Below, piece by piece: positions 1-27,333 of a stretch of DNA of 31,928 bases. The notes below the pieces were generated by a model. It saw only the letters and a program-made list of their open reading frames with translations. It did not search any database and was not told the DNA's origin. This DNA is from a virus. Made by a program: the position numbers and the translations under genes. The stretch is taken from the IMG/VR virus record IMGVR_UViG_3300032797_000633, positions 1 to 31,928 of that record; one strand, 5' to 3'. Within the stretch, counting starts at the first letter, position 1. Each line of letters starts with the position of its first letter.

Positions 1-2410
1 ACTCGCGGCTCAGGTTCTCCAGCCTGCAGAAGGCATACCCATCCGCCGTATTAAACTTCGCGATCCCGGCGATCAGAGGCTGCTGGCCGAGTTCCGCCAC
101 CATCGTCGCGGGCTGGAAGCTGTTCTTAGCCGGGAACGAGAGATTCGGAAGGCCCAGGTAACCCCTGGTGAGTGCGTTCTGGACGGCCAAGGCGTCCCGA
201 AGCGCCGGTCTCCTCTCCTGCAACTCCTCAAAAGCAACCTGGGTCAGGTGCTCCAACATCCCCTTGATCTGCGGCTGGGTCACCTTCGTGGCAAAGGTTT
301 CCAACAGTTTGTACTTGGCCATGAGGACATTGTGGATGGCGGCATCCTCGAAGACCGGGACCCCCTGGATGGCTTTCAAATACTGGTCCCAGAGAAGGCG
401 CTTGATCGGGTCGAGGTTCCTGGTCAGCGGATTGGTGTCCACCCCCTTTATCCTGGCTCCCGCGAATGGTCCGAGGAGGCCCTTCATCCGTTGCTCCTCG
501 ACTTCGGTGAGTCGGAAATTCGTAGGCGTGACCGCCTCGTACATGGGTTCGAGATACAGTTTCCTGGAGAAACTCCTGACGTAGGTATGAGCCACCTTGT
601 CAAGGTCGAAGGAGTAGCCAGGAACGTCCTTCCGTGCCAGGAGGAAGTTGGCCCTGGTTGCCGTTCCTGTGGGCTTCCCGATGTCGTCCGGTGCCAAGGC
701 GATCTCCCAAGCCCTGTAGGCGTCCAAGTTCGGGAAGGTATGACTCATGTACCACCCGAAACTGCGGTCACCCTGACCGAGTGTCTGCAATTCCTTCCAT
801 CCTACGGACTTGCCCATCATTCCAAGGGCGTCGGCGGTTCGGTGCCAGCGGCGGACGGCTTCGGACACCTGTGCTCTCTGCTCGGGCGTCAGTCCAGCCT
901 CAGTGGTGTGCATGATCTGAGACTGCTCTTCCATCCATTGCTGTTTCAGTTCCCAGAACCTGCGGGTCTTCTGGGCCTCGATCAGAGCCTGATCGGCAGC
1001 GTCATAAGCGTCCATGCCAGGGGTGATGCCCATCTCGGGGAGGATGCGCAGGGCCTGGATCCTGGCGGTCTCCTCCGTCCGGGCCGCAAGCATGGCATCG
1101 GCCACCCTCTTCCGGTGCGTGGGATTGAGGTCGGCGACCCTTCCAGCGTGCTGGAGCAACTTCCGGTTGAGGGGCGCGAACGCCTCCTGAAGATAGGCGA
1201 GGCACCCATGGGCCAGGTCGCTGTAGTTATCCGCCGCGACCAGCACCCTCTGGATCAGCGGCTTTGGAAACATCCAGAAAGCGGGCCGGAAGAAGCCGAC
1301 AGCCGACCAGAGTTGTGCGCCGAGGGACGGGTAACCGCCCCCCCTGCTCGGGGGATCAGGCGGGACGGGTGGAGAGGGTGGCGGGGCGAACTCGCCCGGA
1401 GGCGCTGGCGGTTCGGCCGGCGGCGGAGAAGGAACCGCAACCTTCCGCGCATCTGGGGGCCTTGGCGGAGCCTTCTCACCCCTCAGGAAGGCACGGAAAT
1501 GGCCCGTCACCCTCTGAAAATAGCTCAATGCCTCCGGATCGCCAGCGGCCATTGGCTCGACTAAATGGGCACCGAAAGTCGCCGCGGGTAGCACGGGGTT
1601 GGCTGCCCTGAGTTCCTCGTTGAGATTGCTGGGGACAGCATGGAGCGCCAACTCATCGAGGGTCGGCGTGGCCTCGTGGATCATGCGGGGCTCACCCTGG
1701 CCGGTGATCGTCACCTTCGCGTTCTCTATCCGGTTCTGCAACTCCTCGTTGAGGGCCGACCCGGGCTGCCCGTAGAGGTCCTCCACGGTCGTCTCGACAG
1801 TGATCCTGCCCGTCCCCCTGGCCCTCTCCTGAAGGCGCTTGCCTTCCAGGTAGGAGGCGATGTCGCCCGCGACGACCTTGGCGTCTACCTGAGATCCGAT
1901 CCCACCTGTTGCCTGTAACTCCTCGTCGCCGAGGTCCACAGACGCCCGAATCAGGTCGGCCATGCTGGGGTTCCCCACGGTGTCCTCGGGACGCCCGTGG
2001 AACAGGTCGTCGGTGTAGTTTCTCAACGCTTCCTTGGCATCGAAGGCAATGACGCGGTCAGTTGGTTGGACGGTATCCAAGTGCCCAAGGACCATCCTTC
2101 CGAAGTCCGGGACTCTGGCCCCCGGACGCGGTTCCCTGGCGAGGGCGTCGGACGCTGTCTTCATGAATCCCGTGAATCGTTCCGGGCTCGCCCGGTTCGC
2201 CAGGAGAAGCTCAGCCATTGCCTTTTCCCCCGAGGTGGCTCCGACCAAGATCTCCTCAATTGGGGTTCCTGCGGCCAGCCCGCGTTCAACCTGCATGGCC
2301 AGTTTGATCCCCGGCTCCATCTCGGCGAGTCTGGTGCCCCGCTCGACCTTTGAGAGATTGCGCACATAAGGTGCCGCGGCAGCCAGCAACTTCGCGATCG
2401 CGGCGCTCAC
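1..2410 (-). CDS. Very large phage protein, polyvalent/ejection-associated, 3' end outside window
   Basis: The reading frame is open from a GTG at 2410 to the left edge (803 codons, no stop), so the protein is C-terminally incomplete. The GTG shares four bases (GTGA) with the stop of the upstream gene, which fixes the start and implies translational coupling. Residues 1-310 are mostly helical and charged. Residues about 314-359 are a proline-rich linker. Residues 360-803 are again helical, with a segment near 750-770 (GYLGLPNLSFPAKNSFQP) that resembles the N..QP-type motif I associate with very large phage polyvalent-protein domains; that likeness is from memory and weak. No catalytic motif was recognised. 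As the last visible gene after the ejection-type genes and the ParB-like gene, it is probably a virion-delivered or virion-internal protein. Function unknown. Confidence 0.72.
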   Translation of the reverse strand, partial: MSAAIAKLLAAAAPYVRNLSKVERGTRLAEMEPGIKLAMQVERGLAAGTPIEEILVGATSGEKAMAELLLANRASPERFTGFMKTASDALAREPRPGARVPDFGRMVLGHLDTVQPTDRVIAFDAKEALRNYTDDLFHGRPEDTVGNPSMADLIRASVDLGDEELQATGGIGSQVDAKVVAGDIASYLEGKRLQERARGTGRITVETTVEDLYGQPGSALNEELQNRIENAKVTITGQGEPRMIHEATPTLDELALHAVPSNLNEELRAANPVLPAATFGAHLVEPMAAGDPEALSYFQRVTGHFRAFLRGEKAPPRPPDARKVAVPSPPPAEPPAPPGEFAPPPSPPVPPDPPSRGGGYPSLGAQLWSAVGFFRPAFWMFPKPLIQRVLVAADNYSDLAHGCLAYLQEAFAPLNRKLLQHAGRVADLNPTHRKRVADAMLAARTEETARIQALRILPEMGITPGMDAYDAADQALIEAQKTRRFWELKQQWMEEQSQIMHTTEAGLTPEQRAQVSEAVRRWHRTADALGMMGKSVGWKELQTLGQGDRSFGWYMSHTFPNLDAYRAWEIALAPDDIGKPTGTATRANFLLARKDVPGYSFDLDKVAHTYVRSFSRKLYLEPMYEAVTPTNFRLTEVEEQRMKGLLGPFAGARIKGVDTNPLTRNLDPIKRLLWDQYLKAIQGVPVFEDAAIHNVLMAKYKLLETFATKVTQPQIKGMLEHLTQVAFEELQERRPALRDALAVQNALTRGYLGLPNLSFPAKNSFQPATMVAELGQQPLIAGIAKFNTADGYAFCRLENLSRE

Positions 2411-3168
2411 AGATCCTCCGATAGCCGGAACAGGAGTTCCCGATCGGAGATGAGGCCGGAAATCTGAGCCAACCGAAGCCTCTCCTGGCCGGTGGTTGTG
2501 AGTCGGAATCGGGTATCAGTCGGCACGGCCAAGTCACTGATCGACTCGGGCGGAAGGGTCTCAAGGATCTGCGTGAGGAGACTGCTGTTCTCAGGACGGT
2601 CCAACCCTTCCGCAGCGTCTTCCGTGGGAGCACAGCGGACCCTGTCCAGAAGGTCGGCGCAGGCGGCGCCGTCGGACTCGGCCTGCCCGAGAATCCGGTT
2701 CACATCCTCCGGCGTGTAGTTGGACAGTCTGGAGAACAGAACCCGATCCTTCCAGGTCTCGCAGCGGCCGTCCCGGACCCTCACCAGGACCGGGGCTTGG
2801 CGGCTTTCCAGTGCCCAGCGGGGCATTCCGTACTCCGCGACCTTTTCGCTGAGGTAACGAGAGTAGACATCATATCTCCTTTGGTCTCTCAGAATCCGCA
2901 AAGCCTCGAACCTCTTGTTACCGGCTTCCACCAGACCGTCCGGGCCGAGAACTGGCGGGCCGACCCAAGGCGTTGCCGCCCTGCTTACCAGAAGGGATGG
3001 GTCGAGGCGATCCGCCAGCGCGAAGATCGCTCGCTCCCTGTCCTCCGGCGTCAGATCCCTCCGGGTCATGTCTGGGTGCTGAAGGCCAGAGGAGATGTCG
3101 ATCAGTTCATAGTGACACGGCCACTTCTGGCCGAAGAGGTCATAGAGGATGGTGTCGCTGCCGGTCAT
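2407..3168 (-). CDS. DdrB-like ParB-superfamily domain protein
   Basis: The 253-residue product has the layout of the DdrB-like ParB domain found in phage and conjugative-element polyvalent proteins. Residues 71-91 (PPVLGPDGLVEAGNKRFEAL) carry the GPDG..E.GN.R..AL signature. It is followed by a Y..YL.E....YG segment (102-114) and the PVLVRVR strand (126-132). The GN-R motif corresponds to the ParB nucleotide/nuclease motif, but the usual GNGR or GNAR is GNKR here. ParB-superfamily domains bind or hydrolyse CTP or cut DNA; which, if any, applies is unknown. In known polyvalent proteins the domain is usually fused to others, whereas here it stands alone with a short helical C-terminus. Both ends overlap neighbours by four bases (ATGA with the 1283-residue gene, GTGA with the next), so it is part of one translated block. 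A GGAGGGG ribosome site precedes the ATG. Confidence 0.8.
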   Translation of the reverse strand: MTGSDTILYDLFGQKWPCHYELIDISSGLQHPDMTRRDLTPEDRERAIFALADRLDPSLLVSRAATPWVGPPVLGPDGLVEAGNKRFEALRILRDQRRYDVYSRYLSEKVAEYGMPRWALESRQAPVLVRVRDGRCETWKDRVLFSRLSNYTPEDVNRILGQAESDGAACADLLDRVRCAPTEDAAEGLDRPENSSLLTQILETLPPESISDLAVPTDTRFRLTTTGQERLRLAQISGLISDRELLFRLSEDL

Positions 3169-6100
3169 CGCGGCCCCTCCGCCGCCTCGATGCCAGCGTC
3201 GAGTTTCGGATTGGTGCCGACCTCCGGTCGGGGAACTCCAGCCCAGGTCCCGGCGTGCGCCGCGCCAACCTCCGGCTTCTGCCCGATAAGGGCTGGTCCG
3301 ACTTCCTCCGGCGGCCTCAGCGGCATCATGGCCGCGACCGGGATTCCACCACGCTCGAAGATCAGGGGTTTCATCGGCCCTCCCGGAACTGCCCGGATCC
3401 GATCCGGCTGCATTTTCGTTAGGACGATGTCGAGGTAGTCAGGATTCGCAGCCCAGAACGTGTCGGCCGCCCTGTTAGTAAACAGGACCATCGCCGGTTC
3501 AAGTCCGCGTTTCGGTACCTTGCCGATAACCCTGACCTCCATAGTCGCGGCATCGGCCATCTCACCAAAAAACTTCGCCAGCTGGTCCGCTGGCATCTCC
3601 GCGGCTTGTGGGCCTGCAAACCAGTCCCCAGGAATGACTCTCTTCGCCTGGCTGACATCGAGAAGTACGTGGCCATTCGTCACCCAGCGGTTACCAGGGA
3701 TGTAGGGACGGTTCTTCGACTTCGTGAAGTAACTGCCCTTGACGGTTCCCTTCACATAGGGCTCGAACGGCAAGGCGGAAATTTTCTCCGAGATAGTCGT
3801 CTCCTGCGCCTGCTGTTCCGCCAACTTTTTAGCCGCCGCTCTCTCTCTCGCTCGCGGCTGGTCTGGAACCGGAGGGGGCTTCGGGACGCGAATTGGCGCT
3901 GGCTCTGGCGGAATCGGGGGCGGTTCCTCTGGCGGCTTCGCCGCGGTCGCGGGCAACGGCTCAGGACCCGCCGGAGGGGGCGCGGCACCTTGCGTCTCGG
4001 GAGGGCCAGGAAGCCGAAGCCCCTCTCCAGTGACTGCTTCCGGCTTGGTGGGAATTTTCCTTCCCGCCCCTCGGAGCCTGACCTCTGTCCGCGACTGGAC
4101 TATCCGCACATCCTTAGGGTCAAAAATAACCAACTGGTCGGCCTTGAACTGTCCGGAGAATCGGGTCCACTTGACGAGGTTGGTCATTTCGACGCCAGCG
4201 TAGTGCTTTCTCGCCCACTCCCAGAGCCTCGGATCGTCCTTGGGGTACACCGCAACGCCAAGGTCCTGCCTGGCCTGATCGACCGCCCTGACCAGGTCCT
4301 CCGCAGACCCGATCTTCAGTATCGCCAGTTCCCCGAATTTGGGCACGGTAACCGGGACCGCCGTGAGGCGCCTGACCTTCTCTGGCCGTTCGATCCAAGT
4401 CTGGCTGTCGTAGTCAAAGTAGTTCCCACCAAGGGTCTGCTTGGACCACTCCTTATCCTCCAAGGAGAGGTAGACAGCCTCGCCCATTATGCCCCGGCCT
4501 ACCTTTTCTTCGGGTCCCAATCCGCCCACGGCCCAAACCGGCGGTCTCGTCGGATCATAGACACCCGACTCCACGATGGATTTAGCGTTCTCGGGAGTGG
4601 TGAAGTGGTAGAAGATCCTACCTTCGCCCTCAACCTCCATGGCTGCGCCCGGCACCTTTGCTGGGACAGGAGGTACGGCCTCGCCCCGGGCGGTCCGGGC
4701 CTCCCTCGACGAGAGAACCTTGTACCCCATCCTCTGACCGGCGGCCTGGGCGGCCTGGGAGGTCACGAACCCACCTTCGATCGCGTCTTTCGTCTTCGCG
4801 TTGATGATGACGTAGTTGGGATTCTGCTCAGTGTGCCCCAAACCCTTGGCGACGGTCGTCACCAAGGGCTTTTCGCGGTCCCTTCTCAATAGTCTGAGGC
4901 GTTCTCCCTCATTACGGACCCAGGACTCCCCAGCCTCCTGCGTGGTGAAACTGGGGATGTCGGGATACGTCTCACCGCCTTTGCCCCGAATCTGCCAAGT
5001 CCCGGGGTTGAACGGGTCCTCTGCAACGGTGAGTCCGCGCCGAAAGAGAAGCGCCTTCTCCACGTCCCCCAGCGGCGGAACCGATTCGGGGACTTCAACG
5101 AACTCAGAGGGGTGAGCTGGCGGCGGTTTCCCTGGTTCGGGCCCGGCGGCGGGGGACGGAGTCTCAGGAGGCATCAGTTTGAGGCGCTTCTGCCGGAGCT
5201 TCTCGGCGTACATGGCGTCCACGTCCTTGTAGAACGCAGTCTTCATCTCCGCCGTATACCCGGCCTCGTCCAGACCGACTTCCAGATCGCCTAGGACGCG
5301 GTCGTAGACGTCCATCCGGCCCTTCTTGGCCACTGCACCCTCGACCATCTCCCCTATGGCCTCTGGGAGCTTGCCCGCCTTCCGCAGAATCGCCCGTTCT
5401 GCTAGTTGCTGAATTGGCCCGTGACCAGCCTCGGCCCCCATAGTCCCCGTCTTTGCTAAGTGCTCAAGCGTTTCAGCCTCCTCATACAGCTCGTTGAGGT
5501 GGCGGATGGAGGATCTTGAAGACGCCAAACGATCGAGCGTTTCCAGGCTCGGCTCGTGGCCGGCCGTCGCCATCCGGACTTGGGTGAACCCTCCGATCCC
5601 CTCCTTGTTTGGGATCAGATATGTCGCAAAATCGGCCTGTGGGAGAAACAGGCGGGAGTCCCTCAACTGCCCTACATCTTTCATCATCTGGATGCGCCGG
5701 ATCTCCCGCTCCTTCGCCGGCATCCTCGCCCACTGCACCCCCTGGATTCCCTCGAAGGCCCAGAAGAGCGGATCGACCACCGGCATCATGTACTTGTAGA
5801 ACATTTTGCCGGGCTTCCCTGCCGAAGCGTTATCCAGGCCCCAAGTGGTGGTCACCGCATTGATGGCGCTCTCAAGTTCCGGGTTCCAGACCTTCTTGGT
5901 GACATCCCATTCCAGGAGGGTTTTGAGAACCGGATTGTGCCTGATAGCCACCTGGGCGAAGGCTTCTGGCCCCATGCTGGCGTAGGAGTCAGGATGCAGG
6001 AAGGCATCCTTGAATCTGGCGATGTCGTTGTAGGCCAAGGCAGCGTTGGCCGCGAGATAGGTCCGCATCGAGGTCTGGGTGATGGTTCCCTGAGCGGCCC

Positions 6101-7016
6101 GGGCGATGTGACCGAGGGTAAGCCCACCTTTCTGACCCGGAGGTCCGATCTCGACTTCAGGCAGTCCGAGCTTCTCGGCGGCCGCCATCGGTTTCTGGAT
6201 CATCCAATACGGACTGCCCCCACCCGCGGCAGAACCGAGAAGAACCGCGACGTTGAACTTGTTCCACGGGATTCCGACCAGCACCCTGCCTAGGGCCTTT
6301 TTGCTGAGGCCGTATTTCACTAGCGTGCCGAGGGTATTGAAGGGAAAGGGGAAGTTCGCGGCCGGCACCGGCGTCTTCGAGGCGATCCAAGCAAGGGCAC
6401 GGGGGACGGCCATCCTTCCGGCCCCGCCTAACATGGCAGAGACGCCGGAGACGGCAGCGCCAGCCAGGGTTGCGGGAACTGCCTGCCCGGCCACCGTGGG
6501 AAGATTCTCGAAGAAGGTCGGACGGATCAGTTCGTCGTCGGTTGCTCCCAGTTTCTTGAGACTCTCGTTCGCCGCGACCACGGCCTCCGGGGTCTTGTCC
6601 CACGCGGACGGCGCGAAGGCCATCTGCATGATTTCCTTCGCCGCGCCCCAGTCTCGTTCCGGGACGGCAGCCACGGCCTTGCGGATGGTCTCGGGGTCGT
6701 ATCCGTGACAGGCCCGATCAAGGAACCCCAGGGGCGTCGCCGCGTACTCCTCGTCCAGCGGTTCCCGCATGACCCACGTCTCTGCCCTACGCGGCGGCTC
6801 TGGTAGGTCCGGGTACTTCTCGCGGAACCCTCCCGTGATGGACTCGAACCAGTTCTCCCTGCTGGTGAAGTTCCTCACGTACTCCGGGTCAGCGGTCCGC
6901 TTGGCTACCCGATCGATGTAGGCATCGTAGGCCGTCGAATCCGGCGTGGCCGGGTCCAAGCGCATTTGGCGTTTGAGCAGCGCGGCAACCGCCGGATCTG
7001 TCCGAATCGCTGCCAT
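3165..7016 (-). CDS. Large multidomain ejection/polyvalent protein: ART-like and sliding-clamp-like domains
   Basis: A 1283-residue protein in the position of the largest podovirus ejection protein. Residues 1-610 are helical, with hydrophobic stretches at 174-212 and 254-273 that could insert in a membrane. A proline-rich spacer lies at 615-648. Residues about 655-770 hold two small alpha/beta segments I do not recognise. Residues about 799-976 look like an ADP-ribosyltransferase fold: IFYHFTTPENAKSIVESG (His804), GEAVYLSLED (Tyr849) and a final strand LVIFDPKDVRIV. The third catalytic residue could not be assigned. After a long proline-rich linker (1004-1053), residues 1072-1236 resemble one domain of a DNA-polymerase sliding clamp: WVTNGHVLLDV near 1111-1121 and a closing KPLIF...VAAMMPLR, like the VMPMRL end of bacterial DnaN. 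No lytic transglycosylase motif was seen. It starts directly after the stop of the previous gene (TAGATG). The domain calls are by eye. Confidence 0.85.
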   Translation of the reverse strand: MAAIRTDPAVAALLKRQMRLDPATPDSTAYDAYIDRVAKRTADPEYVRNFTSRENWFESITGGFREKYPDLPEPPRRAETWVMREPLDEEYAATPLGFLDRACHGYDPETIRKAVAAVPERDWGAAKEIMQMAFAPSAWDKTPEAVVAANESLKKLGATDDELIRPTFFENLPTVAGQAVPATLAGAAVSGVSAMLGGAGRMAVPRALAWIASKTPVPAANFPFPFNTLGTLVKYGLSKKALGRVLVGIPWNKFNVAVLLGSAAGGGSPYWMIQKPMAAAEKLGLPEVEIGPPGQKGGLTLGHIARAAQGTITQTSMRTYLAANAALAYNDIARFKDAFLHPDSYASMGPEAFAQVAIRHNPVLKTLLEWDVTKKVWNPELESAINAVTTTWGLDNASAGKPGKMFYKYMMPVVDPLFWAFEGIQGVQWARMPAKEREIRRIQMMKDVGQLRDSRLFLPQADFATYLIPNKEGIGGFTQVRMATAGHEPSLETLDRLASSRSSIRHLNELYEEAETLEHLAKTGTMGAEAGHGPIQQLAERAILRKAGKLPEAIGEMVEGAVAKKGRMDVYDRVLGDLEVGLDEAGYTAEMKTAFYKDVDAMYAEKLRQKRLKLMPPETPSPAAGPEPGKPPPAHPSEFVEVPESVPPLGDVEKALLFRRGLTVAEDPFNPGTWQIRGKGGETYPDIPSFTTQEAGESWVRNEGERLRLLRRDREKPLVTTVAKGLGHTEQNPNYVIINAKTKDAIEGGFVTSQAAQAAGQRMGYKVLSSREARTARGEAVPPVPAKVPGAAMEVEGEGRIFYHFTTPENAKSIVESGVYDPTRPPVWAVGGLGPEEKVGRGIMGEAVYLSLEDKEWSKQTLGGNYFDYDSQTWIERPEKVRRLTAVPVTVPKFGELAILKIGSAEDLVRAVDQARQDLGVAVYPKDDPRLWEWARKHYAGVEMTNLVKWTRFSGQFKADQLVIFDPKDVRIVQSRTEVRLRGAGRKIPTKPEAVTGEGLRLPGPPETQGAAPPPAGPEPLPATAAKPPEEPPPIPPEPAPIRVPKPPPVPDQPRARERAAAKKLAEQQAQETTISEKISALPFEPYVKGTVKGSYFTKSKNRPYIPGNRWVTNGHVLLDVSQAKRVIPGDWFAGPQAAEMPADQLAKFFGEMADAATMEVRVIGKVPKRGLEPAMVLFTNRAADTFWAANPDYLDIVLTKMQPDRIRAVPGGPMKPLIFERGGIPVAAMMPLRPPEEVGPALIGQKPEVGAAHAGTWAGVPRPEVGTNPKLDAGIEAAEGPR

Positions 7017-8348
7017 CTACTTCTTCTTCGTCGCCATGATCCTGTCACCAATGGGATTGTCTACAGGACCGAGGCTATCCTCGGGAGCCAACCCCTCGAT
7101 CGGCCCCGGAGTCCATCCCCTGGTCAGACCGCTGTTCAGAAGTCGGTCCCACTGAGTGCTGCCGGGCATCCCGTACTGCCCGACTCCGCCGACCCCCGGC
7201 GCGAACAGGTCCTCCATCTGCAACCGGAGTTCCTCCACCAGCCCCGGCCTCTCCGTCGCGTCATTCCAGCGCTCCCACGTCCGGTAACCGGGCGTACCGG
7301 GAAGGTTCGCCGAATCCCTGGCCTTCGTGATGATCTGCATGGTCGCGTCGCGGATGAACTGTTCCTTTCTCGCCGCATCCTTCCCGAAGTTGAATTGTAT
7401 GAGCGCCTTCACGGAGGGGTCCAACTTTGTCACGTCCCCCCCGCAAACCTGTATCTGCGCCGCGATCTCACCTGGGTAGGCGGCCACCGGCAATCCCCTG
7501 AAGTCGTCGATCGTTCCCGTTCGACCCCGGACCCGAGGTTCTTGCTGCGCCAGAGTCCCAAGAAGGGCGGGAAAACCGTGCATCGCCAGTTCCGGATTCA
7601 TCGCGTAGAGAGTGGAGAACATTTCCTGCGGTGTCTTCGCCTTCTTGAACTGCTCTGCTTGGGCTGCGCTGACGGCATCCTTGGAATCGAGCGCGGCGTG
7701 CATGGTAGCGCCGATGGCCCTGATCTCGGCCTCGAATCCGGGGTTGCCGCGAACCAAGAATCCGACTCCGGTGTCCAGTTCGGCGTGCGTCTTCCCCGCT
7801 CTGATGACGTCCATTCCCATGGTCGTCAGCATCTGTCTGGTCCGCACAGCCTCCGCCTGCTTCTGGGGGTTCACCACTTCGGCTCCGGGGGCCAGGCTGG
7901 CGCCTACTTCCCGGGCCATTAGCCCCAGATTCGCCTGCTGACTCTCCGGCGTGAGGGCCCCAAAAACCGTTTGCAACATCCCGAATCTCTGACCACGTTC
8001 CTGGGCGGCAAGTTGCCTCTTGGCGATCTCCACCCTCTGCCGTTCGATCTCTTGCTGGGCTGCGAACTCCGCAGCGGATCGCGCTCCCTTGAGGTGCCCC
8101 GCCAGGAACGCCGCAGCCGCCTCTGGCCCTTGCTTCGTCCTGCTCCCTAGGGCGTAGGCCAACCCGGTCAGGACGATGGGCAGTCCCCAAGACAGAAGGG
8201 CATCGTGATGCCTCTGGCGCTCCCCCTCTGGGAGGTTGTCGCCGGTGGTTGCTGCCCTGACCCCGCTGGGGAGGGAACCCCACGGATCCTGAACCGCAGA
8301 TCCGGGAGACTGAGCCGCCAGAAGAGGCAAGTTCACTTGCTTAGCCAT
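7017..8348 (-). CDS. Putative internal virion / DNA-ejection protein, medium size
   Basis: I place the start at ATG 8348 (MAKQVNLPLL), 7 bases after the upstream stop and preceded by GAGG at proper spacing. An upstream in-frame start at 8396 would run into the previous gene. The 443-residue product has one hydrophobic segment at about residues 50-69 (LLSWGLPIVLTGLAYALGSR), then an alanine/glutamine-rich amphipathic helix region (about 75-125). The rest is helical, and the C-terminus is lysine-rich (ATKKK). No enzyme motif was recognised. Its size and place between a roughly 200-residue gene and a very large gene match the ejection-protein trio of podoviruses (P22 gp7/gp20/gp16, T7 gp14/gp15/gp16). 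Such proteins sit inside the capsid and form a channel in the cell envelope during infection. The assignment is by gene order and composition only. Confidence 0.8.
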   Translation of the reverse strand: MAKQVNLPLLAAQSPGSAVQDPWGSLPSGVRAATTGDNLPEGERQRHHDALLSWGLPIVLTGLAYALGSRTKQGPEAAAAFLAGHLKGARSAAEFAAQQEIERQRVEIAKRQLAAQERGQRFGMLQTVFGALTPESQQANLGLMAREVGASLAPGAEVVNPQKQAEAVRTRQMLTTMGMDVIRAGKTHAELDTGVGFLVRGNPGFEAEIRAIGATMHAALDSKDAVSAAQAEQFKKAKTPQEMFSTLYAMNPELAMHGFPALLGTLAQQEPRVRGRTGTIDDFRGLPVAAYPGEIAAQIQVCGGDVTKLDPSVKALIQFNFGKDAARKEQFIRDATMQIITKARDSANLPGTPGYRTWERWNDATERPGLVEELRLQMEDLFAPGVGGVGQYGMPGSTQWDRLLNSGLTRGWTPGPIEGLAPEDSLGPVDNPIGDRIMATKKK

Positions 8349-8355
8349 GACGACC

Positions 8356-8973
8356 TCACAGGGCTGCCTGGCCCATGGTTTGCCCGAGGGATGCAAAGAA
8401 ACTCAGCCAGTCGTAGGGTTCCTCGGTCTTGGCATATCCGGTCGTCCGAGTCGTCCCAAGCACCCTGGCAGTTCGCAACCGCAGCTCCGTCAGGTCCCGC
8501 AGGAGTTGCGGATTCGCCGCCCACTGGGCCATCTGCAACCTCGCCGCCCGGTTGGCCGTCGAGCCCTGGTAAATCTGCTCGGCTGTGCCCGCCTGCGCCC
8601 TCGCGGCCAGCGAAGCATACTGCCGGAGAAGTTCCCTCTGACCGATGCCAAGGGCCCTCCCGTAGTTGCTCGATCCTAGAAGCCCTCGGTTGGCCATCTC
8701 GGCCGCGGTCTGCCTCTGAAAATCCTCGAACACTCCGCCCATCTCTTCCCTGGCCGCCCCGAGGGATGTCCTCTCCGCCTGCGCCGCGAGGCTCAAAAGG
8801 TCCTGACTAGGCCCCAACCCGAAGAGGTCGCCACCCCGCAGGCCCCCGGCGATGGACCTGTAGATTCCCAAAGCCAACTGCCGCAAAAGGACCTCTTCCG
8901 GCGACTCTGCCGCCGCCTGAATCTGCTGTTCTGTCCTGACAGTTTCGTCGGTCCATTTCTTGGTAACAGGCAT
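8356..8973 (-). CDS. Putative small internal virion / ejection protein
   Basis: 205 residues, ATG at 8973 preceded by AGGAGG five bases upstream; this site overlaps the region just after the stop of the spike gene. The protein is almost entirely helical and rich in Ala, Gln, Arg and Leu. Its central glycine-containing patch (ANRGLLGSSNYGRALG, near residues 93-108) is of the type seen in small podovirus internal proteins. The C-terminus (DWLSFFASLGQTMGQAAL) is amphipathic. There is no signal peptide and no catalytic motif. By position and length it corresponds to the first member of the ejection trio (T7 gp14 or P22 gp7 class, about 200 residues). This is inference; no specific family signature was identified. 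Confidence 0.78.
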   Translation of the reverse strand: MPVTKKWTDETVRTEQQIQAAAESPEEVLLRQLALGIYRSIAGGLRGGDLFGLGPSQDLLSLAAQAERTSLGAAREEMGGVFEDFQRQTAAEMANRGLLGSSNYGRALGIGQRELLRQYASLAARAQAGTAEQIYQGSTANRAARLQMAQWAANPQLLRDLTELRLRTARVLGTTRTTGYAKTEEPYDWLSFFASLGQTMGQAAL

Positions 8974-8982
8974 GTCGGCCTC

Positions 8983-11877
8983 CTAAGCGTCGATGTCTCG
9001 GAACGGATCGACGGTTGCGTTGATGATGTTCATTCGTGGTCCATACCGGTTGTCGCCCTGGGCGTAGCCGAAGAAGTCCCCGCCCATCAGGAGGATCTCG
9101 TCCCTGCTCGTCGGAACAATCGCGGCGCAGTAGGCGTTGCCCGCAAAAGAGGTCCCCTTGTAAAGCGTGGTCGGCAGCAACTTCCGAAGGACCTCCCGGT
9201 TGATGACCGTCCCTTCGATGGGCGCGGAGAAAAGAGCGATTGCAGAAGCGTGGCCGGTGCCGCCGACGAAAATCAACTTCCGCTGCCTGCCGCCAATGTT
9301 CACCGTGGCTAGGTTGACTACCCAGAGGGCGGACATCCAGTCGGACGAGCCGACGATGAAGAAGGCCAGAGGATAGCCGAGGCCGTCTTGCTCTCCAATG
9401 CCCCCCAGCCAATGCTGCGGCCTGGTGCTCTCGTTCGGCGAGAGAATGATCGGGAAGGGATTCGTCTCCGTCCTGATGATACGCGATCCGGGGTCGCTTT
9501 CCCCGCCCGTACCCCAGTGATAGATGATCCCGGAGACGGAGAGGCCCCCGACCATGATGCCATCTCCCAAATCGGTCGCACTCCAGACCTCCGCCACGGG
9601 GTCCCGGAACCAGAATCCGTGTCTGTTTGTGTCGATCGAAAAGACGGTTCCGGAGACTCCCTCAGTCCTTGTCATGTAGGCAATGTTGGTCGGACAGGTG
9701 GCGGGGATGTCATAGTCCCTTTCGTGAAGGGAACCCGCCCGTGTCAGCACGTCCTGGAATTGCCCCCCTATCAGCAGGGAGGCCCCCATCGGCAGGAGGC
9801 AGTTGACTTCGGGCGGTATGCCCCTGCAGGGAGGATTGTACGGTCCGCCGACTCCGGTCTCGTTGGAGAACACGCCGGTGATCGGGTCGTAGAAGAGGAT
9901 GTGATTCAGATCCCTAACCCAGGTCCCGCCCTGTGTCCTCACCTCATTGAAGGTTCCACCGAAAACGATGTACCTGCCCCACTCGGCGGCGCAGTTGATG
10001 TGCCCGTTTTTCGTGATCCCACCGAACGTATACCTCGTTTCCAAGAGGAGGCGCCCGATGGTCACCAAATCGTCCGTGTAGGCCAGGTTCCCCATCGTGC
10101 TGGCACCGTCCCCGGACTTGGTGAAGGATCCATAGATGTAACACCTGCCCCCCACCTTGGTGACACCGTTGACATAGCCGTCAAACCCGGTGCCGATCGG
10201 CGAGAATCGGCTTCCGTCCCACTTGGCGATGCGCCTCGTTGTGGCTGCGCCGCAGTAGTTGAACATGCCCGCGAGAACGACCCTCGATCCCTCTTCGCCT
10301 TCCGGGAACACAGAGATGCTGCGGACGGTATAGGATGCACCCGAACCGATGGGCTTCCAGGAGAAGGCCGGCTTGCCCTCCACGAACGCGGTCAGTTCGT
10401 CCAGGGTGCAGTAGGCGAGGTTGTTGATCGCCATCCCGGTCCTTGTCCTATCGTTTCGGTAGGTCAGTTCGAACTCGTGACCCGTGCGAGCCACGGTTCT
10501 ACCCTCGATCCAGGAGCACTGCGGACCGATCGTGTTCAGGGCAATCACGTTGCGGCCTGAGAGCGTCGGCTCTGACTGGGACAGCGTGCGGATCCCGCCC
10601 GTAATCCCGTAGGGAGCATTGGTCGGGCCGGCCACCATGTTGGCCACGATGACACCACCCGGTTTGTTGCAGGTGAGGCCGTCCGGGATCTGGCCTGCCG
10701 CACCGTGCATGTCGGGCAGGATCGAGTTTCCGTAGAAGATCGGATAGTGGGAATCCGAAAGAACATGCGAGGTTGATAGCGCGCCCCTGGCTTGTATCAT
10801 GCACCCGCTGACCGTGTTGTGCGCGTTCGGCGCCTGAGTCGTCCCATGGAGATATATCGGATTGCCCACGACTGAACTCTTGCCCTTCATCTTCAGTCCG
10901 ATGACCGAAAACGAATCCTTAGCCGCGGGCTGGCCACAACCCATCGTGACTATCCCGTACCAGGCCGTGCCGAACTCTCCGCTCCCCACGCCGTCCATCA
11001 TTCCCCCAAGAACGGCGCCCGCACAATTCTCCACCAGAAGTCCCTTTGGCGTCTGAAACCCCCAATAGCAGTCCGACAGGAGGCACCATTCGACGTTCTT
11101 AAGCCTCACCCCGTACCTGCTGCCGGGGAAACCCGGGAAGACCTGGTTCCCACAGTAGTGGAAGTTGCACCTTTGGAAGAACAGCGTGGCCGAAGGCACG
11201 TTGCTCCGGGCGGATTCCTCCCAGCACACTCCGGAGTACGCTCGCGAACCGTAGAAGGTCAGATCGATGAAGGAAGTGCAGGTGTGACCAACGGAGTAGC
11301 TCTGCAAACCCACCACGGCCAGTTTGTCATTGTCGCTGTCCGCGAGGTAGTCCCTGACGAGGTAAACGCCCGGGGTGCCTATGTAGGTCAGGTTCGGCTC
11401 CAGGGGTAGGTACTTGTAACCGGACCCCACGGGCACCTTGAAGTGGTAGGCCTTTCCCGCGGCGGTCCTCGGAAAGTACACGATCCCGGCGGTGTTGCTG
11501 TTCTTGGCTGCGGTGATCGCCGCCAACAACCCGGTCCAGTTGTCGGTCGTGGGGTCCGGACTGCAACCATACGCGGTCACGTCCACAACATCATCCATGA
11601 CGTTGCAGGCGTTCATGAGCATCTCGCCGCCTATGTCCAGGTCGGCATCGAGATCGGGCGACCAGCAGATTTCCTCTGGAAGAATGCCTACGGCGCCCGG
11701 GACCGGCGTTCCACCCGCGTCCAGGCAGTTCAGCTTCGTGGCCAGACTGTAGGGAAAGTCAGTCAGGGCGGGCGTGAGTTCCGCCGTGCCCCCGAAGATC
11801 CGATTGAGGAAATCGGCCGTCAGGTACTTCCTGTAGTTCAGGTCTTCCAGAACCTGCGGATCAATCTTCCAGGCCAT
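8983..11877 (-). CDS. Tailspike-like protein: beta-helix followed by propeller-like repeats
   Basis: A 964-residue protein. Residues 1-95 form a short head-binding-type N-terminus. Residues about 95-170 (VVDVTAYGCSPD..., GIVYFPR..., YLPLEPNLTYIGTPGVYL) follow the pectate-lyase-like pattern that begins many phage right-handed beta-helices, and beta-helix-like coils continue to about 470. From about residue 500 the pattern changes to repeated units such as VVLAGMFNYCG, RIAKWDGSRFSPIGTGF, CYIYGSF, YIVFGGTFNEV and LLIGGQFQDV. This is the 'gG.F ... WdG..w' rhythm of beta-propeller or Kelch-like repeats. Expected role: receptor binding or polysaccharide depolymerisation at the tail tip. No catalytic residues could be assigned. 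The start is two bases after the upstream stop, with GGAG as ribosome site. Confidence 0.88.
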   Translation of the reverse strand: MAWKIDPQVLEDLNYRKYLTADFLNRIFGGTAELTPALTDFPYSLATKLNCLDAGGTPVPGAVGILPEEICWSPDLDADLDIGGEMLMNACNVMDDVVDVTAYGCSPDPTTDNWTGLLAAITAAKNSNTAGIVYFPRTAAGKAYHFKVPVGSGYKYLPLEPNLTYIGTPGVYLVRDYLADSDNDKLAVVGLQSYSVGHTCTSFIDLTFYGSRAYSGVCWEESARSNVPSATLFFQRCNFHYCGNQVFPGFPGSRYGVRLKNVEWCLLSDCYWGFQTPKGLLVENCAGAVLGGMMDGVGSGEFGTAWYGIVTMGCGQPAAKDSFSVIGLKMKGKSSVVGNPIYLHGTTQAPNAHNTVSGCMIQARGALSTSHVLSDSHYPIFYGNSILPDMHGAAGQIPDGLTCNKPGGVIVANMVAGPTNAPYGITGGIRTLSQSEPTLSGRNVIALNTIGPQCSWIEGRTVARTGHEFELTYRNDRTRTGMAINNLAYCTLDELTAFVEGKPAFSWKPIGSGASYTVRSISVFPEGEEGSRVVLAGMFNYCGAATTRRIAKWDGSRFSPIGTGFDGYVNGVTKVGGRCYIYGSFTKSGDGASTMGNLAYTDDLVTIGRLLLETRYTFGGITKNGHINCAAEWGRYIVFGGTFNEVRTQGGTWVRDLNHILFYDPITGVFSNETGVGGPYNPPCRGIPPEVNCLLPMGASLLIGGQFQDVLTRAGSLHERDYDIPATCPTNIAYMTRTEGVSGTVFSIDTNRHGFWFRDPVAEVWSATDLGDGIMVGGLSVSGIIYHWGTGGESDPGSRIIRTETNPFPIILSPNESTRPQHWLGGIGEQDGLGYPLAFFIVGSSDWMSALWVVNLATVNIGGRQRKLIFVGGTGHASAIALFSAPIEGTVINREVLRKLLPTTLYKGTSFAGNAYCAAIVPTSRDEILLMGGDFFGYAQGDNRYGPRMNIINATVDPFRDIDA

Positions 11878-11879
11878 GT

Positions 11880-14789
11880 CTACTCCAGCACGATGTTGAA
11901 GTTGCCGAACTCGACGGTTCCCGATCCAGTGTTCCTAAAGCAGTTGTCCGGATGGTACTTGTCGGCGATGACCGGGGAGTCGGGGCCGTTGTTCGGGCAC
12001 AGGCTGTTGCAGGCCACCATGTTCTCCTTGCCTCCGTTGATCTCCAAACCGTAGGTCTGGTGGGAGACTGCCAACTCATCGTTGTTCAGGGTGCACGCGG
12101 TGATCTTGCAGCTTGAGCAGCCATCCATCAGCATCCCGGCCAGTCGGTTGGCGTTGTTGGCTCCATAGCAGTTAGCCACGGCTCTGGACCCCACGGCACT
12201 CACCGCGTTGCAGGAGCCCAATTTTATCCCCGACTTCCCGTTCTGGTGGGCGTTGGCCAGGATCGTCCCCCGGGTGCAGGCGTGCAGGTAGAGGCCATTC
12301 CCGAGGCAGGTCACGGCTGAGCATCCGTTGATCTGAAAATCGTGACTGTCCGTAAGGTAGAACCCGTCTTCGATACACTGGTCGGCCTTGCATCCCACCA
12401 TGTCCAGACCCTCAACGTCGGCCGTCGCGTAACCGTACTGACAGTGTATGGCCCGGCAGTGTTCTACCGAAAGGTTCGTGGCCCCGGCAACGTCCAGGAG
12501 ACAGTACAGGTCCCGGCCAAAGGCCCTCTCGATGTGGGCATTGGTAGTGTTGCTGAGGTTCAGGCCCGTCTGCTTGCGGTCCGTCCCCAGGAACTGGAAT
12601 CCTGCGACGTAACTGCCAGCCCCACTGAGGACGAACCCATGGGACCTGTCCGTGGAGGAGTACATCTGGACGATAGTCTTCCAGCCCGACCCGATGAGAG
12701 AGAGGCCGGAAGGCACGACCACGGCGTCGGAAAGCCTGTAGTACCCCGCCCCGAAGTAAGCCGCTCCGTATCCCTCCGAGGCGATGGCCTTCAGGGCCGT
12801 GTAGATGGCCTCGGTCTCATCGATCGTCCCTGAGCCGGCCACGCCTTTGGATCTGACATTGCAGACCCCGGTCATGACATTTTTCGCGCCGATGAGAGAG
12901 TGGCCGTTCAGGTCCAGATCGACGCTGAGGATCAACTTGCCGCCCTCGACGTGGAGGTCGTTGACGCTGACCATGTGCATGAACTTTGCTTCGATGGAGG
13001 CTAGGACGGCCCTGAGGTCGGAGGCCCTCAGGGCATCGCCGTCTCCCCACTGAACGGGTGATCTCCAACCTATGGGACTGCCTGGCATGGTTGCTTCCTC
13101 CGTGGGCGCTGGTACGGTAGGCACCGGCGGCGGTGGTATGGTGATGACTCCGGCCCGGGCCATGGCGAAGGCCGCAGCGACTCCTAGGGTAAAGGCACCG
13201 CCCACGAGATCGGCGTGAGCCGCCTGGGCGGTGGCGACCGCCGGGTCGAGGAGGAGGGAATACGGTCCCGGGGAGACGGCCATCTGCGGGGCTGCGGCGA
13301 CGCACGCGGCCGAGGATAGACTCAAAGAGTAGGCCCCGCCCGAGGGCGTGACCGATGGAGCGGAAGCCGTCGCAACCGCCGGAGACAGTGAGACCGAATA
13401 GGGACCGCCCGATGGACTCGCCGTTGGCGCCGCGGCAGTTGCGGAAGCGGAGGAAACCGAAACCGTGCATGGACCCCCGGACGGTGCCACGGTCCCAGCA
13501 CTCGCCGTGGCCGCAGCGGCGCTCATGTAAACCGTGGTCGGAGCCGGCTGGCTGTAGTACACCAGAATGACTTCGATGTAGGGCGGATAGGCCGCCCCGG
13601 AGGAACAGGCCGCGATGTTGATGTTCGTGGTCGCACTGGAGGTAGAGTCGCTCCCGACGGTCCAGGTGTGCGTGTGCGTGCGGCGGGAGTGAATGTCGGA
13701 CATGGGAGTGTTCACGGACACCATGTCCAGATTGCCCTCACCTACATCGAGAACCGTATGGGCATGCGCGTTCTGCGCATGATAGTGATTCAGGGTGTGC
13801 GTATGCGTCAGGGAACCCCCGGACGTGGGCGAAGTATCGGCCGCTCCGTTCGCCGTGAGAATCATATCCTGGGTCGCGTTGCGACGGGCCCAGCCGCTAG
13901 GAATATCGACAGCGGCACCCAACCAGAGTCCGATGACTCCGGTAGGGGTGCTGGACCCGCCGGTGTCGTTCTGGATCAGGAGGAATTTCTCCCACTTGGG
14001 CAGGGCGTCGGTAGCGCTGGTGGCATCCGAGTTCGCCACGTTCGTTGCCGTCGCATCCAATACGCTGACCTCATGGGCGTGACCATCCTGCGTGTGCAGG
14101 CCATCCGTGGTCGTATCCAGCAGATGGTCGGGATGAGCAGCGACGGAAGAGGTCCAACTGGCGTGGCCATGACTACCCTGGGTGTGGTTATGGGGGGCGG
14201 ACTGGGCATGGGTCTGAGTAGCGTCGCCGCCGGTGGCGTTGCCGTCGGCGCCCGTGGCCGCACCCTTCAGTAGGTAGTGATTCTTGGAAACCGCGGTCCA
14301 GTTCGTCGGGAGGGCACCGGCGTTAGCCGTCTCCCAGATGGCCCAGCAGAGGCTGGGAATGTCGTTCGTCCCCGCCGACTCGATCCAGATGACGTTCAGG
14401 TAGGAGGGCGCGTTGTTGGCAGCCGACAGGGTCACGGCCTCGGTGGTGTTCGTAGGCAAACTGGTGACCTGGCTGGATGGGGCAGAGCCGTGAAGGTGGG
14501 CGGTGCCGCAGAACCAGTAACCCTTGGTGCTGGCCGAGGCGTCGTGGTTCCTCCCCTGCCCGTCTCCCGCAGCCGAGGTTGGGTGAGTATGCTGCTGGAC
14601 CATATGGGTGTGGTTCGCCGGATTGGCATGAGTGTGGGTGGCGGTTCCGCCGGTCCCCCCGCCAGCGGTTCCGGTCGTCGTGTAGACGTATAGACCGTCC
14701 ATGGCGGTCTTCCTGGACCACCCGGCCAGTCCAGCAACGGCCGCGTGGGTTCCGGGCCAGGGGAAGATGATTCCACTGGGGACGGCCAC
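11880..14789 (-). CDS. Tail fibre/spike with three collar-like His-rich domains, 23-residue repeats and a beta-helix
   Basis: A 969-residue protein starting at GTG 14789, with AGGAG eight bases upstream. Residues 1-415 contain three successive collar-type units. Each has a Trp-containing start (GIIFPWPG, LCWAIWE, GVIGLWLG), a His-rich loop (THTHANPANHTH; THAQSAPHNHTQGSHGHA; THTHTLNHYHAQNAHAHT) and a closing strand (YLNVIWIES; FLLIQND; YIEVILVYYS). HxH clusters in phage fibres bind iron or other metals along the trimer axis. Residues 419-549 are tandem 23-residue repeats. A Pro-rich hinge (551-562) leads to residues about 570-969, which contain a pectate-lyase-like entry (YFGAGYYRLSDAVVVPSGLS) and a right-handed beta-helix with N/C-rich coils. 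It is likely a trimeric receptor-binding fibre or spike. Confidence 0.88.
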   Translation of the reverse strand: MAVPSGIIFPWPGTHAAVAGLAGWSRKTAMDGLYVYTTTGTAGGGTGGTATHTHANPANHTHMVQQHTHPTSAAGDGQGRNHDASASTKGYWFCGTAHLHGSAPSSQVTSLPTNTTEAVTLSAANNAPSYLNVIWIESAGTNDIPSLCWAIWETANAGALPTNWTAVSKNHYLLKGAATGADGNATGGDATQTHAQSAPHNHTQGSHGHASWTSSVAAHPDHLLDTTTDGLHTQDGHAHEVSVLDATATNVANSDATSATDALPKWEKFLLIQNDTGGSSTPTGVIGLWLGAAVDIPSGWARRNATQDMILTANGAADTSPTSGGSLTHTHTLNHYHAQNAHAHTVLDVGEGNLDMVSVNTPMSDIHSRRTHTHTWTVGSDSTSSATTNINIAACSSGAAYPPYIEVILVYYSQPAPTTVYMSAAAATASAGTVAPSGGPCTVSVSSASATAAAPTASPSGGPYSVSLSPAVATASAPSVTPSGGAYSLSLSSAACVAAAPQMAVSPGPYSLLLDPAVATAQAAHADLVGGAFTLGVAAAFAMARAGVITIPPPPVPTVPAPTEEATMPGSPIGWRSPVQWGDGDALRASDLRAVLASIEAKFMHMVSVNDLHVEGGKLILSVDLDLNGHSLIGAKNVMTGVCNVRSKGVAGSGTIDETEAIYTALKAIASEGYGAAYFGAGYYRLSDAVVVPSGLSLIGSGWKTIVQMYSSTDRSHGFVLSGAGSYVAGFQFLGTDRKQTGLNLSNTTNAHIERAFGRDLYCLLDVAGATNLSVEHCRAIHCQYGYATADVEGLDMVGCKADQCIEDGFYLTDSHDFQINGCSAVTCLGNGLYLHACTRGTILANAHQNGKSGIKLGSCNAVSAVGSRAVANCYGANNANRLAGMLMDGCSSCKITACTLNNDELAVSHQTYGLEINGGKENMVACNSLCPNNGPDSPVIADKYHPDNCFRNTGSGTVEFGNFNIVLE
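13143..13535 (-). repeat. Tandem 23-residue (69-bp) repeats inside the fibre gene
   Basis: Five to five and a half imperfect copies of a 23-residue unit lie end to end at residues 419-549 of the fibre protein. Copies read like TVSVSSASATAAAPTASPSG plus GPY, and SVSLSPAVATASAPSVTPSG plus GAY. Each has an alternating small/hydrophobic strand, an AxATAxAP core and a turn ending in GGPY, GGAY or GGAF. Copies diverge in DNA sequence, so the repeat is old or under selection at protein level. Confidence 0.85.
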
Positions 14790-15502: not shown

Positions 15503-16834
15503 CTACGGACTGCGCCGGAAGATGAAGTAGGCGTAGTCCCAGCGTTCTGTCGCGGCGGACGCGAGGTGGACGATGACCATTCCGTTGCGCAGTTCCGCAA
15601 TCGGCGGCACGTCCCAATCCCTGCCCGGATGGGCTAACCTGTAGATCGGCTGTATCAAGACAGAAAACGCCGTGGAATCGAACCCGGCAATAGTCAAGGT
15701 GTCGAACGTAGCTAGGGAGTCCAGATAGGCAACCCCAGACCACGGCGTTGAAATCCCCAAAGGAGCGTCAAAAGTCTGCAGGGTGTCGTAGACCCCGAGG
15801 CACCTGACCCTGAGGGAGTCTTTATGCGTCTCCTCGGTGCCGATGTCCACGTCCCCCAGAAACTCTCCGGCCCGGTCGAGGGAGGATCGGGTCGTGTCCG
15901 TCTCGGCGTGAAAGGCAATGTTTTTGCCGTGGTGGGTCGTCACGGTCTTGGCCGAGACATGAATCCCGAAATTGACGCAACTGTCGGTGACCGCCGGATC
16001 ATTGCTTTCGCATTTGAGGCCGTAGACGTCGCTGACCCTCGCGCTCCCCAAACGAGCCAGATAGGCGCCGCCGACCTTTCCGGTCGCCCCGTAGTTGACC
16101 TTGACCCCGTAGACCTGGGTCCCGCCGGTCTCACCGGACATATTCAGGTCCACGCCGTTGGCCGTCCCCCCAGCGTCCCTGGTGTAGGTCAGGGCCGGAC
16201 CGACCCAGGGATTCACGCTGATGGCCGTGCCGGTTGTCAGGACGCCACCGGCGATGTCGATGACCCTGGAGGCGGAGGACCCGACGCCTCGATACGCGGA
16301 AAAACCGGCCTGACCCGCCGGGACTTCTCCCAGGACCATCTGGTCGCCTCTCAGGAACTCGGCATTGACCGTCGTCGTCGTATCTATCCTGGTTCCGGGA
16401 AGGCCATAGAGGGCAACTGCCAAGGAATCCACGCAGTTCTGGCCCGGCTTGGACATGTCGAAGCGGAGGTTCTTGACCACGAGAGTATCAGGGCCGGTCG
16501 CGGCTACCAGATAGATGGAGCAGGACACTCGGGACCAGTTAGACAGGGGGCTGAGTCTTGCCGGGTCCGGTGCCCAACTCTTGCTCACGGTGTCGTAGAC
16601 GGCGTTGGTGCAGAACCCGGTGGTATCGGCTCGCAGCATGGTACCCACGGAGTCCTGGCAGATGCGGACGCCAAGGCAGTTGTCGTCCGTGACCCTGGTC
16701 GTGACCGCGTACTCGTCCGTGCGGTATATGGGCAGGTGCCAGACGGCGACCTGCTGGTCGGCCGTGACCGTAGCGCCGAGAGGACTACTCGCCAGGAGTA
16801 ATAGCAGGGCCGTCGCCAATGCTGATCGTAACAC
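15503..16834 (-). CDS. Secreted-type (signal peptide) beta-rich protein in the tail module
   Basis: I choose GTG 16834 as start. A perfect AGGAGG lies six bases upstream, and the resulting N-terminus is a textbook signal peptide: VLRSALATALLLLLASSPLG, then ATVTA as a possible signal peptidase I site. A longer in-frame version to 16918 would add an Arg/Pro-rich stretch that only shadows the neighbouring gene. The protein is 443 residues and overlaps the end of the nozzle-like gene by 50 bases. The rest is beta-rich with many Thr, Ser, Asp and Gly. It contains phrases such as DTLVVKNLRFDM, GGTQVYGVKVNYGATG and DSLATFDTLTI, but no enzyme motif that I recognise. A cleavable signal peptide is unusual for a phage tail protein. 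It may be an exported decoration or adhesin, or a host-derived fibre whose leader is kept. Confidence 0.8.
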   Translation of the reverse strand: MLRSALATALLLLLASSPLGATVTADQQVAVWHLPIYRTDEYAVTTRVTDDNCLGVRICQDSVGTMLRADTTGFCTNAVYDTVSKSWAPDPARLSPLSNWSRVSCSIYLVAATGPDTLVVKNLRFDMSKPGQNCVDSLAVALYGLPGTRIDTTTTVNAEFLRGDQMVLGEVPAGQAGFSAYRGVGSSASRVIDIAGGVLTTGTAISVNPWVGPALTYTRDAGGTANGVDLNMSGETGGTQVYGVKVNYGATGKVGGAYLARLGSARVSDVYGLKCESNDPAVTDSCVNFGIHVSAKTVTTHHGKNIAFHAETDTTRSSLDRAGEFLGDVDIGTEETHKDSLRVRCLGVYDTLQTFDAPLGISTPWSGVAYLDSLATFDTLTIAGFDSTAFSVLIQPIYRLAHPGRDWDVPPIAELRNGMVIVHLASAATERWDYAYFIFRRSP

Positions 16835-27331: not shown

Positions 27332-27333
27332 GG

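What the first reader, a model, noticed from the sequence alone, without database searches (positions are those of the whole stretch)
3165..7016. Ejection-position protein that carries an ART-like domain: a possible virion-delivered effector
The largest gene of the ejection trio encodes, after a membrane-interacting-type N-terminal half, a segment (about 4089-4622) with His804 in YHFTT, Tyr849 in GEAVYLSL and a closing LVIFDPKDV strand. This is the layout of ADP-ribosyltransferase folds. Polyvalent phage proteins that mix such effector domains and enter the cell with the DNA have been proposed (Iyer, Aravind and colleagues). Here the effector appears fused to the ejection protein itself.
Basis: partly seen in the sequence, partly recalled or inferred. 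Interest (0 to 1): 0.82.

Follow-up and report, generated by a model that had tools for sequence, protein, structure and literature searches.

The report
Phage ejection-cluster protein with ART-like domain
A large protein of an uncultured short-tailed phage, encoded where such phages encode the proteins they push into the host with their DNA, carries a very diverged segment that looks like an ADP-ribosyltransferase but lacks the usual third active-site acid; this is an odd, unproven member of a kind of phage effector already described.

Summary
No Pfam, PHROG, NCBIfam, PADLOC or PDB profile recognises the segment, and no homologue was found in any collection searched. Three weak signals agree on an ART-like domain at residues ~797-975. 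(1) The beta1-alpha1 motif YHFTTPENAKSIVESG occurs elsewhere only in DarT ARTs among 2.2 million residues. (2) The end, RLWEWARKHYAGVEMTN...LVIFDPKDVR, scores best in the window against an ART-PolyVal profile, at single-test P about 0.002. (3) With 88 ART-PolyVal rows AlphaFold rises from pLDDT 34 to 57; the strand-5/6 end reaches ~86, and the nearest known structures are MbcT and PARP ART domains, only weakly. Against activity: the family's strand-5 Asp (85/88) falls on Ala940. D966 of the 'closing strand' is not a conserved position. Context supports virion cargo: the next gene, overlapping by 4 bases, is a ddrB-ParB polyvalent-type domain, and the cluster order matches podovirus ejection genes. 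In the best-placed distant relative the equivalent large ejection protein resembles the following gene instead, so this protein may be added cargo. Verdict: plausible new member of a known kind, not established.

The parts
3165..7016 (-). 1283-aa protein P0001: helical N-terminal half, Pro-rich linker, globular 650-790, ART-like 797-975, Pro-rich linker, globular 1071-1283
   Evidence: no profile hit
4077..4628 (-). ART-like domain, residues 797-980
4560..4610 (-). beta1-alpha1 motif YHFTTPENAKSIVESGV, residues 803-819, with H804 (codon 4605-4607)
   Evidence: DarT profile aligns here in register; pattern otherwise only in DarT ORFs
4461..4484 (-). beta2 motif GEAVYLSL, residues 845-852, with Y849 (codon 4470-4472)
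   Evidence: falls on the F/Y column of ART-PolyVal (77/88); one search shows such column matches alone are not above shuffles
4101..4232 (-). helix plus beta5/beta6, residues 929-972: PRLWEWARKHYAGVEMTN...ADQLVIFDPKDVRI; A940 (codon 4197-4199) at the family's Asp position, E943 nearby
   Evidence: pLDDT about 84-87
5067..5189 (-). Pro-rich linker, residues 610-650 (32% Pro)
3807..4076 (-). Pro-rich linker, residues 981-1070 (29% Pro)
6228..6482 (-). hydrophobic stretches 179-197 and 245-263, possible membrane-interacting part
   Evidence: sub-transmembrane hydropathy
2407..3168 (-). solo ddrB-ParB gene, 253 aa, start overlaps the stop of P0001 (ATGA)
   Evidence: PF18763 58.5 bits, E 9e-16; junction
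2..2410 (-). last gene of the cluster, 803+ aa, start overlaps the ddrB-ParB stop (GTGA), cut by the contig end; weakly like the large ejection-position protein of relative G818
7017..8396 (-). 459-aa gene in gp15/gp20-like position
   Evidence: order and size only
8356..8973 (-). 205-aa gene in gp14/gp7-like position
   Evidence: order and size only

Best explanation
P0001 is a polyvalent-type virion cargo protein of a podovirus. It is made with the late structural genes, packed in the head with the ejection proteins and passed into the host with the DNA. Residues ~797-975, hung between two Pro-rich linkers, form a very diverged ADP-ribosyltransferase-like domain with a His in strand 1 and a Tyr in strand 2 that would bind NAD+ and modify a host macromolecule early in infection. 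The ddrB-ParB protein translated from the next, coupled gene would act beside it on DNA. Shown: the sequence motifs, the ddrB-ParB neighbour, the gene order. Inferred: the ART fold, packaging and ejection, NAD+ use, the host target. Catalytic activity is the least certain step because the usual third acid is missing.
For: N-terminal end: the DarT profile aligns YHFTTPENAKSIVESGV (803-819) to its His motif, and the pattern occurs in 2.19 million residues only here and in six DarT ORFs. C-terminal end: an ART-PolyVal profile picks 929-972 as its best place in the whole window (4.7 bits against 1.1 for the next protein; single-test E 0.0024), and hhalign beat all 200 shuffles (23.9 against 20.3). 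AlphaFold: pLDDT 34.0 alone, 57.5 with 88 ART-PolyVal rows, strand-5/6 end about 84-87. Best structural neighbours are MbcT and PARP/tankyrase ART domains, Z 3.4 and below, and viral PolyVal ARTs, E 0.011. Context: ddrB-ParB next door; three ddrB-ParB records also carry ART-PolyVal, for example InPase + ddrB-ParB + ART-PolyVal in one protein; ddrB-ParB lies inside epsilon15 gp16-like ejection proteins.
Against: No curated family reaches even E = 10 on the segment, nor any PDB sequence. No homologue exists to test conservation. About 50 of several thousand non-ART pieces score as well on the profile. The deeper hhalign profile chose a false register. Column matches in a family alignment do not exceed shuffles. 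The AlphaFold gain may come from the supplied rows; Foldseek against the PDB found nothing significant. The conserved strand-5 Asp (85/88) is Ala940.
Confidence: 0.55

Rival explanations
1. The domain has the ART fold but is no longer an enzyme: having lost the strand-5 acid it serves as a binding or scaffold module of the ejected protein (NAD+/ADP-ribose binding or protein contact).
For: The family's strand-5 Asp (85/88) is Ala940 in the best register; the divergence is extreme.
Against: H804, T806 and Y849 are kept; E943 lies close by; 3 of the 88 family domains also lack Asp at that column; which acid would serve cannot be settled from one sequence.
Confidence: 0.25
2. The segment is not an ART. 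It is an unrelated alpha/beta domain of a fast-evolving ejection protein, and the motifs are coincidence.
For: No profile hit in four libraries; chance-level MAFFT columns; about 1% of unrelated pieces reach the same profile score; low-confidence model.
Against: Two different ART profiles mark the two ends of the same pre-named segment in the right order; motif specificity.
Confidence: 0.2
3. P0001 is the gp16-like ejection protein itself, with the ART-like domain fused to the part that crosses the inner membrane (the reader's reading; a variant of the best explanation, not exclusive of it).
For: Third and largest of a 205/459/1283-aa series, sizes and order like P22 and T7 ejection operons (PMC8954989); two hydrophobic stretches.
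Against: In relative G818, with the order 247/520/1416 aa, the large protein resembles the window's following gene 2..2410 (phmmer E 2.4e-5 in a one-to-one comparison), not P0001. So P0001 plus ddrB-ParB could be extra cargo placed before the true large ejection protein.
Confidence: 0.35
4. P0001 is a structural or tail protein that is not delivered into the cell.
For: The cluster lies directly after the fibre genes (8983-14789), and nothing here shows where the protein sits.
Against: The coupled ddrB-ParB gene and the parallel with epsilon15-type gp16 followed by gp17.
Confidence: 0.12

Closest known systems
ART-PolyVal (PF18760; Iyer et al. 2017, PMC5512222), e.g. in the Roseovarius Plymouth podovirus 1 virion RNA polymerase
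   Same: H in strand 1 (YHxT), Y/F in strand 2, final strand [VI]FDPxx[VI][KR]; sits in a large protein encoded with virion genes and near ddrB-ParB
   Different: Below detection by the Pfam model; GxDG of strand 5 is YAGV (Ala940); longer H-Y spacing and a longer strand 2 to 5 insert; beta1-alpha1 looks like DarT, not YHGT
DarT (PF14487)
   Same: beta1-alpha1 motif YHxTxxxNxxSI[LV]xxG in register
   Different: No match beyond that motif; DarT is a stand-alone toxin paired with the antitoxin DarG (general knowledge), and no such pair was looked for or seen here
epsilon15-type gp16 ejection protein with SLT and ddrB-ParB (phages Piluca, MD-2021a)
   Same: ddrB-ParB unit directly before the last large pilot/ejection gene of the late cluster
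   Different: There ddrB-ParB is inside the protein with a transglycosylase-like domain; here it is a separate gene behind an ART-like protein; no detectable homology of P0001 to gp16 or gp17
Phage T4 Alt
   Same: Concept only: a virion ART injected with the DNA
   Different: Different ART clade (R-S-E active site) and a different kind of virion; taken from PMC5512222, not compared here

Membership tests
ART-PolyVal (PF18760) | Model score above the curated cut-off | tested here: not met
   no hit up to E 10
ART-PolyVal (PF18760) | Catalytic His in strand 1 (YHxT) | tested here: met
   H804 and T806
ART-PolyVal (PF18760) | Tyr/Phe in strand 2 | tested here: met
   Y849 on the F/Y column, 77/88; alignment control weak
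ART-PolyVal (PF18760) | Asp in strand 5 (GxDG) | tested here: not met
   A940 on the Asp column, 85/88 Asp; E943 only in a poorer register
ART-PolyVal (PF18760) | Closing strand with FxPxQIK | tested here: met
   FDPKDVR, residues 965-971, with Q replaced by D
ART fold (superfamily) | Predicted structure matches ART structures | tested here: inconclusive
   pLDDT 57.5 with family rows; Z 3.4 to MbcT and PARPs; Foldseek against the PDB not significant
DarT (PF14487) | Family model match over the domain | tested here: not met
   Only residues 803-819 align, -0.3 bits; no Pfam hit
Polyvalent protein | Large multi-domain protein in a late/virion gene context combining several effector domains | tested here: inconclusive
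   Context met; only one domain of P0001 is tentatively named; ddrB-ParB is in a separate gene
Podovirus gp16-like ejection protein | Third gene of a gp14-, gp15-, gp16-like operon with matching sizes | tested here: met
   205/459/1283 aa; compare the sizes in PMC8954989 and relative G818
Podovirus gp16-like ejection protein | Sequence homology to a known ejection protein | tested here: not met
Podovirus gp16-like ejection protein | Present in virions and ejected | not testable with these tools
   needs virions of this uncultured phage or a relative
ddrB-ParB (PF18763), neighbour gene | Model score above cut-off | tested here: met
   58.5 bits against cut-off 27.6

The most novel reading that the evidence does not exclude
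A previously unrecognised ART clade, with a DarT-like first motif, a PolyVal-like last strand and a changed third catalytic residue, carried as cargo by podovirus ejection clusters and invisible to present family models, so that virion-delivered ARTs are more common in short-tailed phages than surveys count.
Probability: 0.3. Interest if true: 0.6.

Novelty: new member of a known kind. Interest (0 to 1): 0.38.

Why it matters
If true, it adds a diverged ADP-ribosyltransferase to the proteins that short-tailed phages may send into the cell with their DNA, and it shows that family models miss such domains. A published survey finds components of the NAD+-ADP-ribose network in only 18% of podoviruses against 60% of myoviruses (PMC9503650); undetected members like this one would narrow that gap. 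It would also give a small, testable case of an ART with an altered active site next to a coupled ddrB-ParB gene.

Tried and rejected
(1) Homologues of P0001 or of the domain: none in IMG/VR, phages (the domain alone at E up to 10 gave only chance matches), plasmids, bacterial and archaeal genomes (395 genomes), or the records of portal and terminase relatives. The phiTY18 match is a GIY-YIG-like homing-endonuclease ORF read partly across a stop. The matches are chance: different short parts of unrelated proteins. (2) A degenerate DNA pattern for the H...Y motif gave one chance match in IMG/VR and 15 in genomes, none in a fitting reading frame. (3) Single-sequence AlphaFold was useless (pLDDT 34). 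(4) hhalign with a deeper profile aligned the segment's start with the family's tail, PENAKSIVESGVYDP against PEQIKSAIGNRGTFDP; this false register inflated the first Smith-Waterman test. With trimmed tails the excess fell to 32.9 against 28.9 +/- 1.0, with a shuffle reaching 33.7 and other window proteins reaching 32.0, so I do not rely on it. (5) MAFFT placing H804 on the invariant His looked striking, but shuffled sequences match as many conserved columns, so it is not used as evidence for homology. (6) An alternative register in which FYHFTTPENA is strand 2 and AVYLSLED is strand 3 was judged less likely: it leaves no strand-1 His. (7) A Tox-ART-HYD1 profile could not be built (no match in 321 genomes). 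(8) A beta-clamp-like look of residues 1085-1240 (from memory) found no support.

Full report
What is there. The window is a 31,928-base IMG/VR virus record. Its main genes lie on the minus strand: terminase 27334-28791, portal 25079-27553, a coat-protein-like gene 22185-23108, an SU10-adaptor-type protein 18554-19498, a gene similar to a P22-type stabilisation protein 16785-18554, and two large fibre-type genes. After the fibres come 8356-8973 (205 aa), 7017-8396 (459 aa), P0001 at 3165-7016 (1283 aa), a 253-aa gene at 2407-3168 and an ORF of at least 803 aa that runs off the contig at position 2. P0001 starts right behind the stop of 7017-8396. The next two genes overlap by four bases each (ATGA, GTGA), so the last genes look translationally coupled.

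YHFTT begins at residue 803, GEAVYLSL at 845 and LVIFDPKDV at 962, as stated. Two Pro-rich linkers (610-650 and 981-1070) separate a mostly helical N-terminal half, a globular part (650-790), the segment in question and a C-terminal globular part. Two N-terminal stretches are hydrophobic, but not at transmembrane level.

Is the segment an ADP-ribosyltransferase? No curated family or PDB sequence recognises it, and no homologue was found. I therefore fetched members of the nearest family that the literature names. Polyvalent-protein ARTs (ART-PolyVal, PF18760) have His in strand 1, Tyr in strand 2 and Asp in strand 5 (PMC5512222). A set of 124 copies came from IMG/VR and other loci. Against a trimmed profile of this family the segment scores 4.7 bits, single-test E 0.0024. 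It is the best place in the window by far (next protein 1.1 bits), but about 50 of several thousand unrelated pieces do as well. The aligned part is residues 929-972, the helix plus strands 5 and 6. An hhalign run with a 13-member profile chose the same part and beat 200 of 200 shuffles. A DarT profile, built from 24 sequences fetched, aligned residues 803-819 in register with its own His motif (YhithidnlpsIlakgl). The pattern [YFL]H.T-x(6,9)-I[LVI]..G occurs seven times in 2.19 million residues: here and in six DarT ORFs. A three-part ART motif occurs in 22 ART-PolyVal places and here, and never in 3.36 million shuffled residues. These patterns were written after seeing the sequence, so the counts describe specificity and are not unbiased P values.

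Controls that weaken the case. MAFFT puts H804 on the family's invariant His and Y849 on its F/Y column, but shuffled sequences match as many conserved columns. A deeper hhalign profile chose a wrong register, and a Smith-Waterman test lost most of its strength when the family's tails were removed.

Structure. Alone, the segment gave pLDDT 34. With 88 ART-PolyVal rows it gave 57.5, with 84-87 over about residues 931-970. VIA-align lists MbcT and then PARP and tankyrase ART domains, all at Z 3.4 or less. Foldseek against viral models lists PolyVal ARTs first (E 0.011); against the PDB nothing is significant.

Active site. In the family alignment the conserved strand-5 Asp (85 of 88) falls on Ala940, with Glu943 three residues on. 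The domain may therefore use another acid, or be inactive.

Delivery. The neighbouring 253-aa gene is a ddrB-ParB domain (PF18763, 58.5 bits). In the related loci examined this domain mostly lies inside much larger proteins. In epsilon15-type phages it lies in the gp16-like ejection protein, behind a transglycosylase-like domain and directly before the pilot gene. Three of the ddrB-ParB records also carry ART-PolyVal, one of them as InPase, ddrB-ParB and ART-PolyVal in one protein. The published view is that DdrB-like ParB domains and ARTs of this kind are packed in heads and injected (PMC5512222; PMC9503650). The order and sizes 205/459/1283 fit podovirus ejection operons, for example P22 229/471/609 and T7 196/747/1318 (PMC8954989). 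Relative G818, found by its terminase, has the order 247/520/1416. Its 1416-aa protein resembles the window's last gene, 2..2410 (one-to-one phmmer E 2.4e-5), and not P0001. P0001 and ddrB-ParB may thus be cargo inserted between the second ejection protein and the true large one. This similarity is weak and needs the missing end of the contig.

How it would work. Most likely P0001 is packed with the ejection proteins and enters the cell with the DNA, and its ART-like domain binds NAD+ and modifies a host target early in infection. Motifs, neighbour and order are shown; fold, packaging, activity and target are inferred.

Novelty. ARTs in polyvalent virion proteins, including one fused to an ejected virion RNA polymerase (PMC5512222; ejection of N4-type vRNAP: PMC12633501 abstract), are known. 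This is a diverged new member of that kind with a separate ddrB-ParB gene and a changed active site. The idea that the effector is fused to the ejection machinery itself is neither shown nor new.

Noticed in passing
2-2410 (-): Open-ended gene, 803+ aa, no Pfam hit; YVRSFSRKLYLEPMYEAV resembles YGRFMYRKIYLEPAFESV in the 1416-aa protein of relative G818. Probably the real large ejection protein, cut by the contig end.
   Followed up: partly
2407-3168 (-): ddrB-ParB as a solo 253-aa gene coupled by 4-base overlaps on both sides; in the relatives examined it mostly lies inside larger proteins.
   Followed up: partly
L028, L029, L032: epsilon15-type phages (Acinetobacter MD-2021a, Alcaligenes Piluca) carry ddrB-ParB inside the gp16-like ejection protein behind a weak SLT transglycosylase match; annotated only as tail or phage protein.
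   Followed up: partly
L160:3527-4015: An ART-PolyVal copy whose strand-5 Asp is Val (GYVGAT) and whose end, NQAVVFDPKNIR, resembles the window's ADQLVIFDPKDVR; it lies in a protein with a second, intact-looking ART copy.
   Followed up: no
3807-4076 (-) and 3168-3806 (-): Second Pro-rich linker followed by a C-terminal domain with WVTNGHVLLDV...NPDYLDIVL...AAMMPLR, which recalls a sliding-clamp half; from memory, no search supports it.
   Followed up: partly
30539-31093 (+): The only clear plus-strand gene: CxxC zinc ribbon plus helix-turn-helix (GWTQQELAGTLRVERGTVTNWE), MqsA-like in layout; reading by eye, not searched.
   Followed up: no
16785-18554 (-): Matches the stabilisation-type protein of Manatee Spring phage MW202601 (23% identity) although its best PHROG is labelled lysis/amidase (phrog_5107); that label looks misleading.
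   Followed up: no
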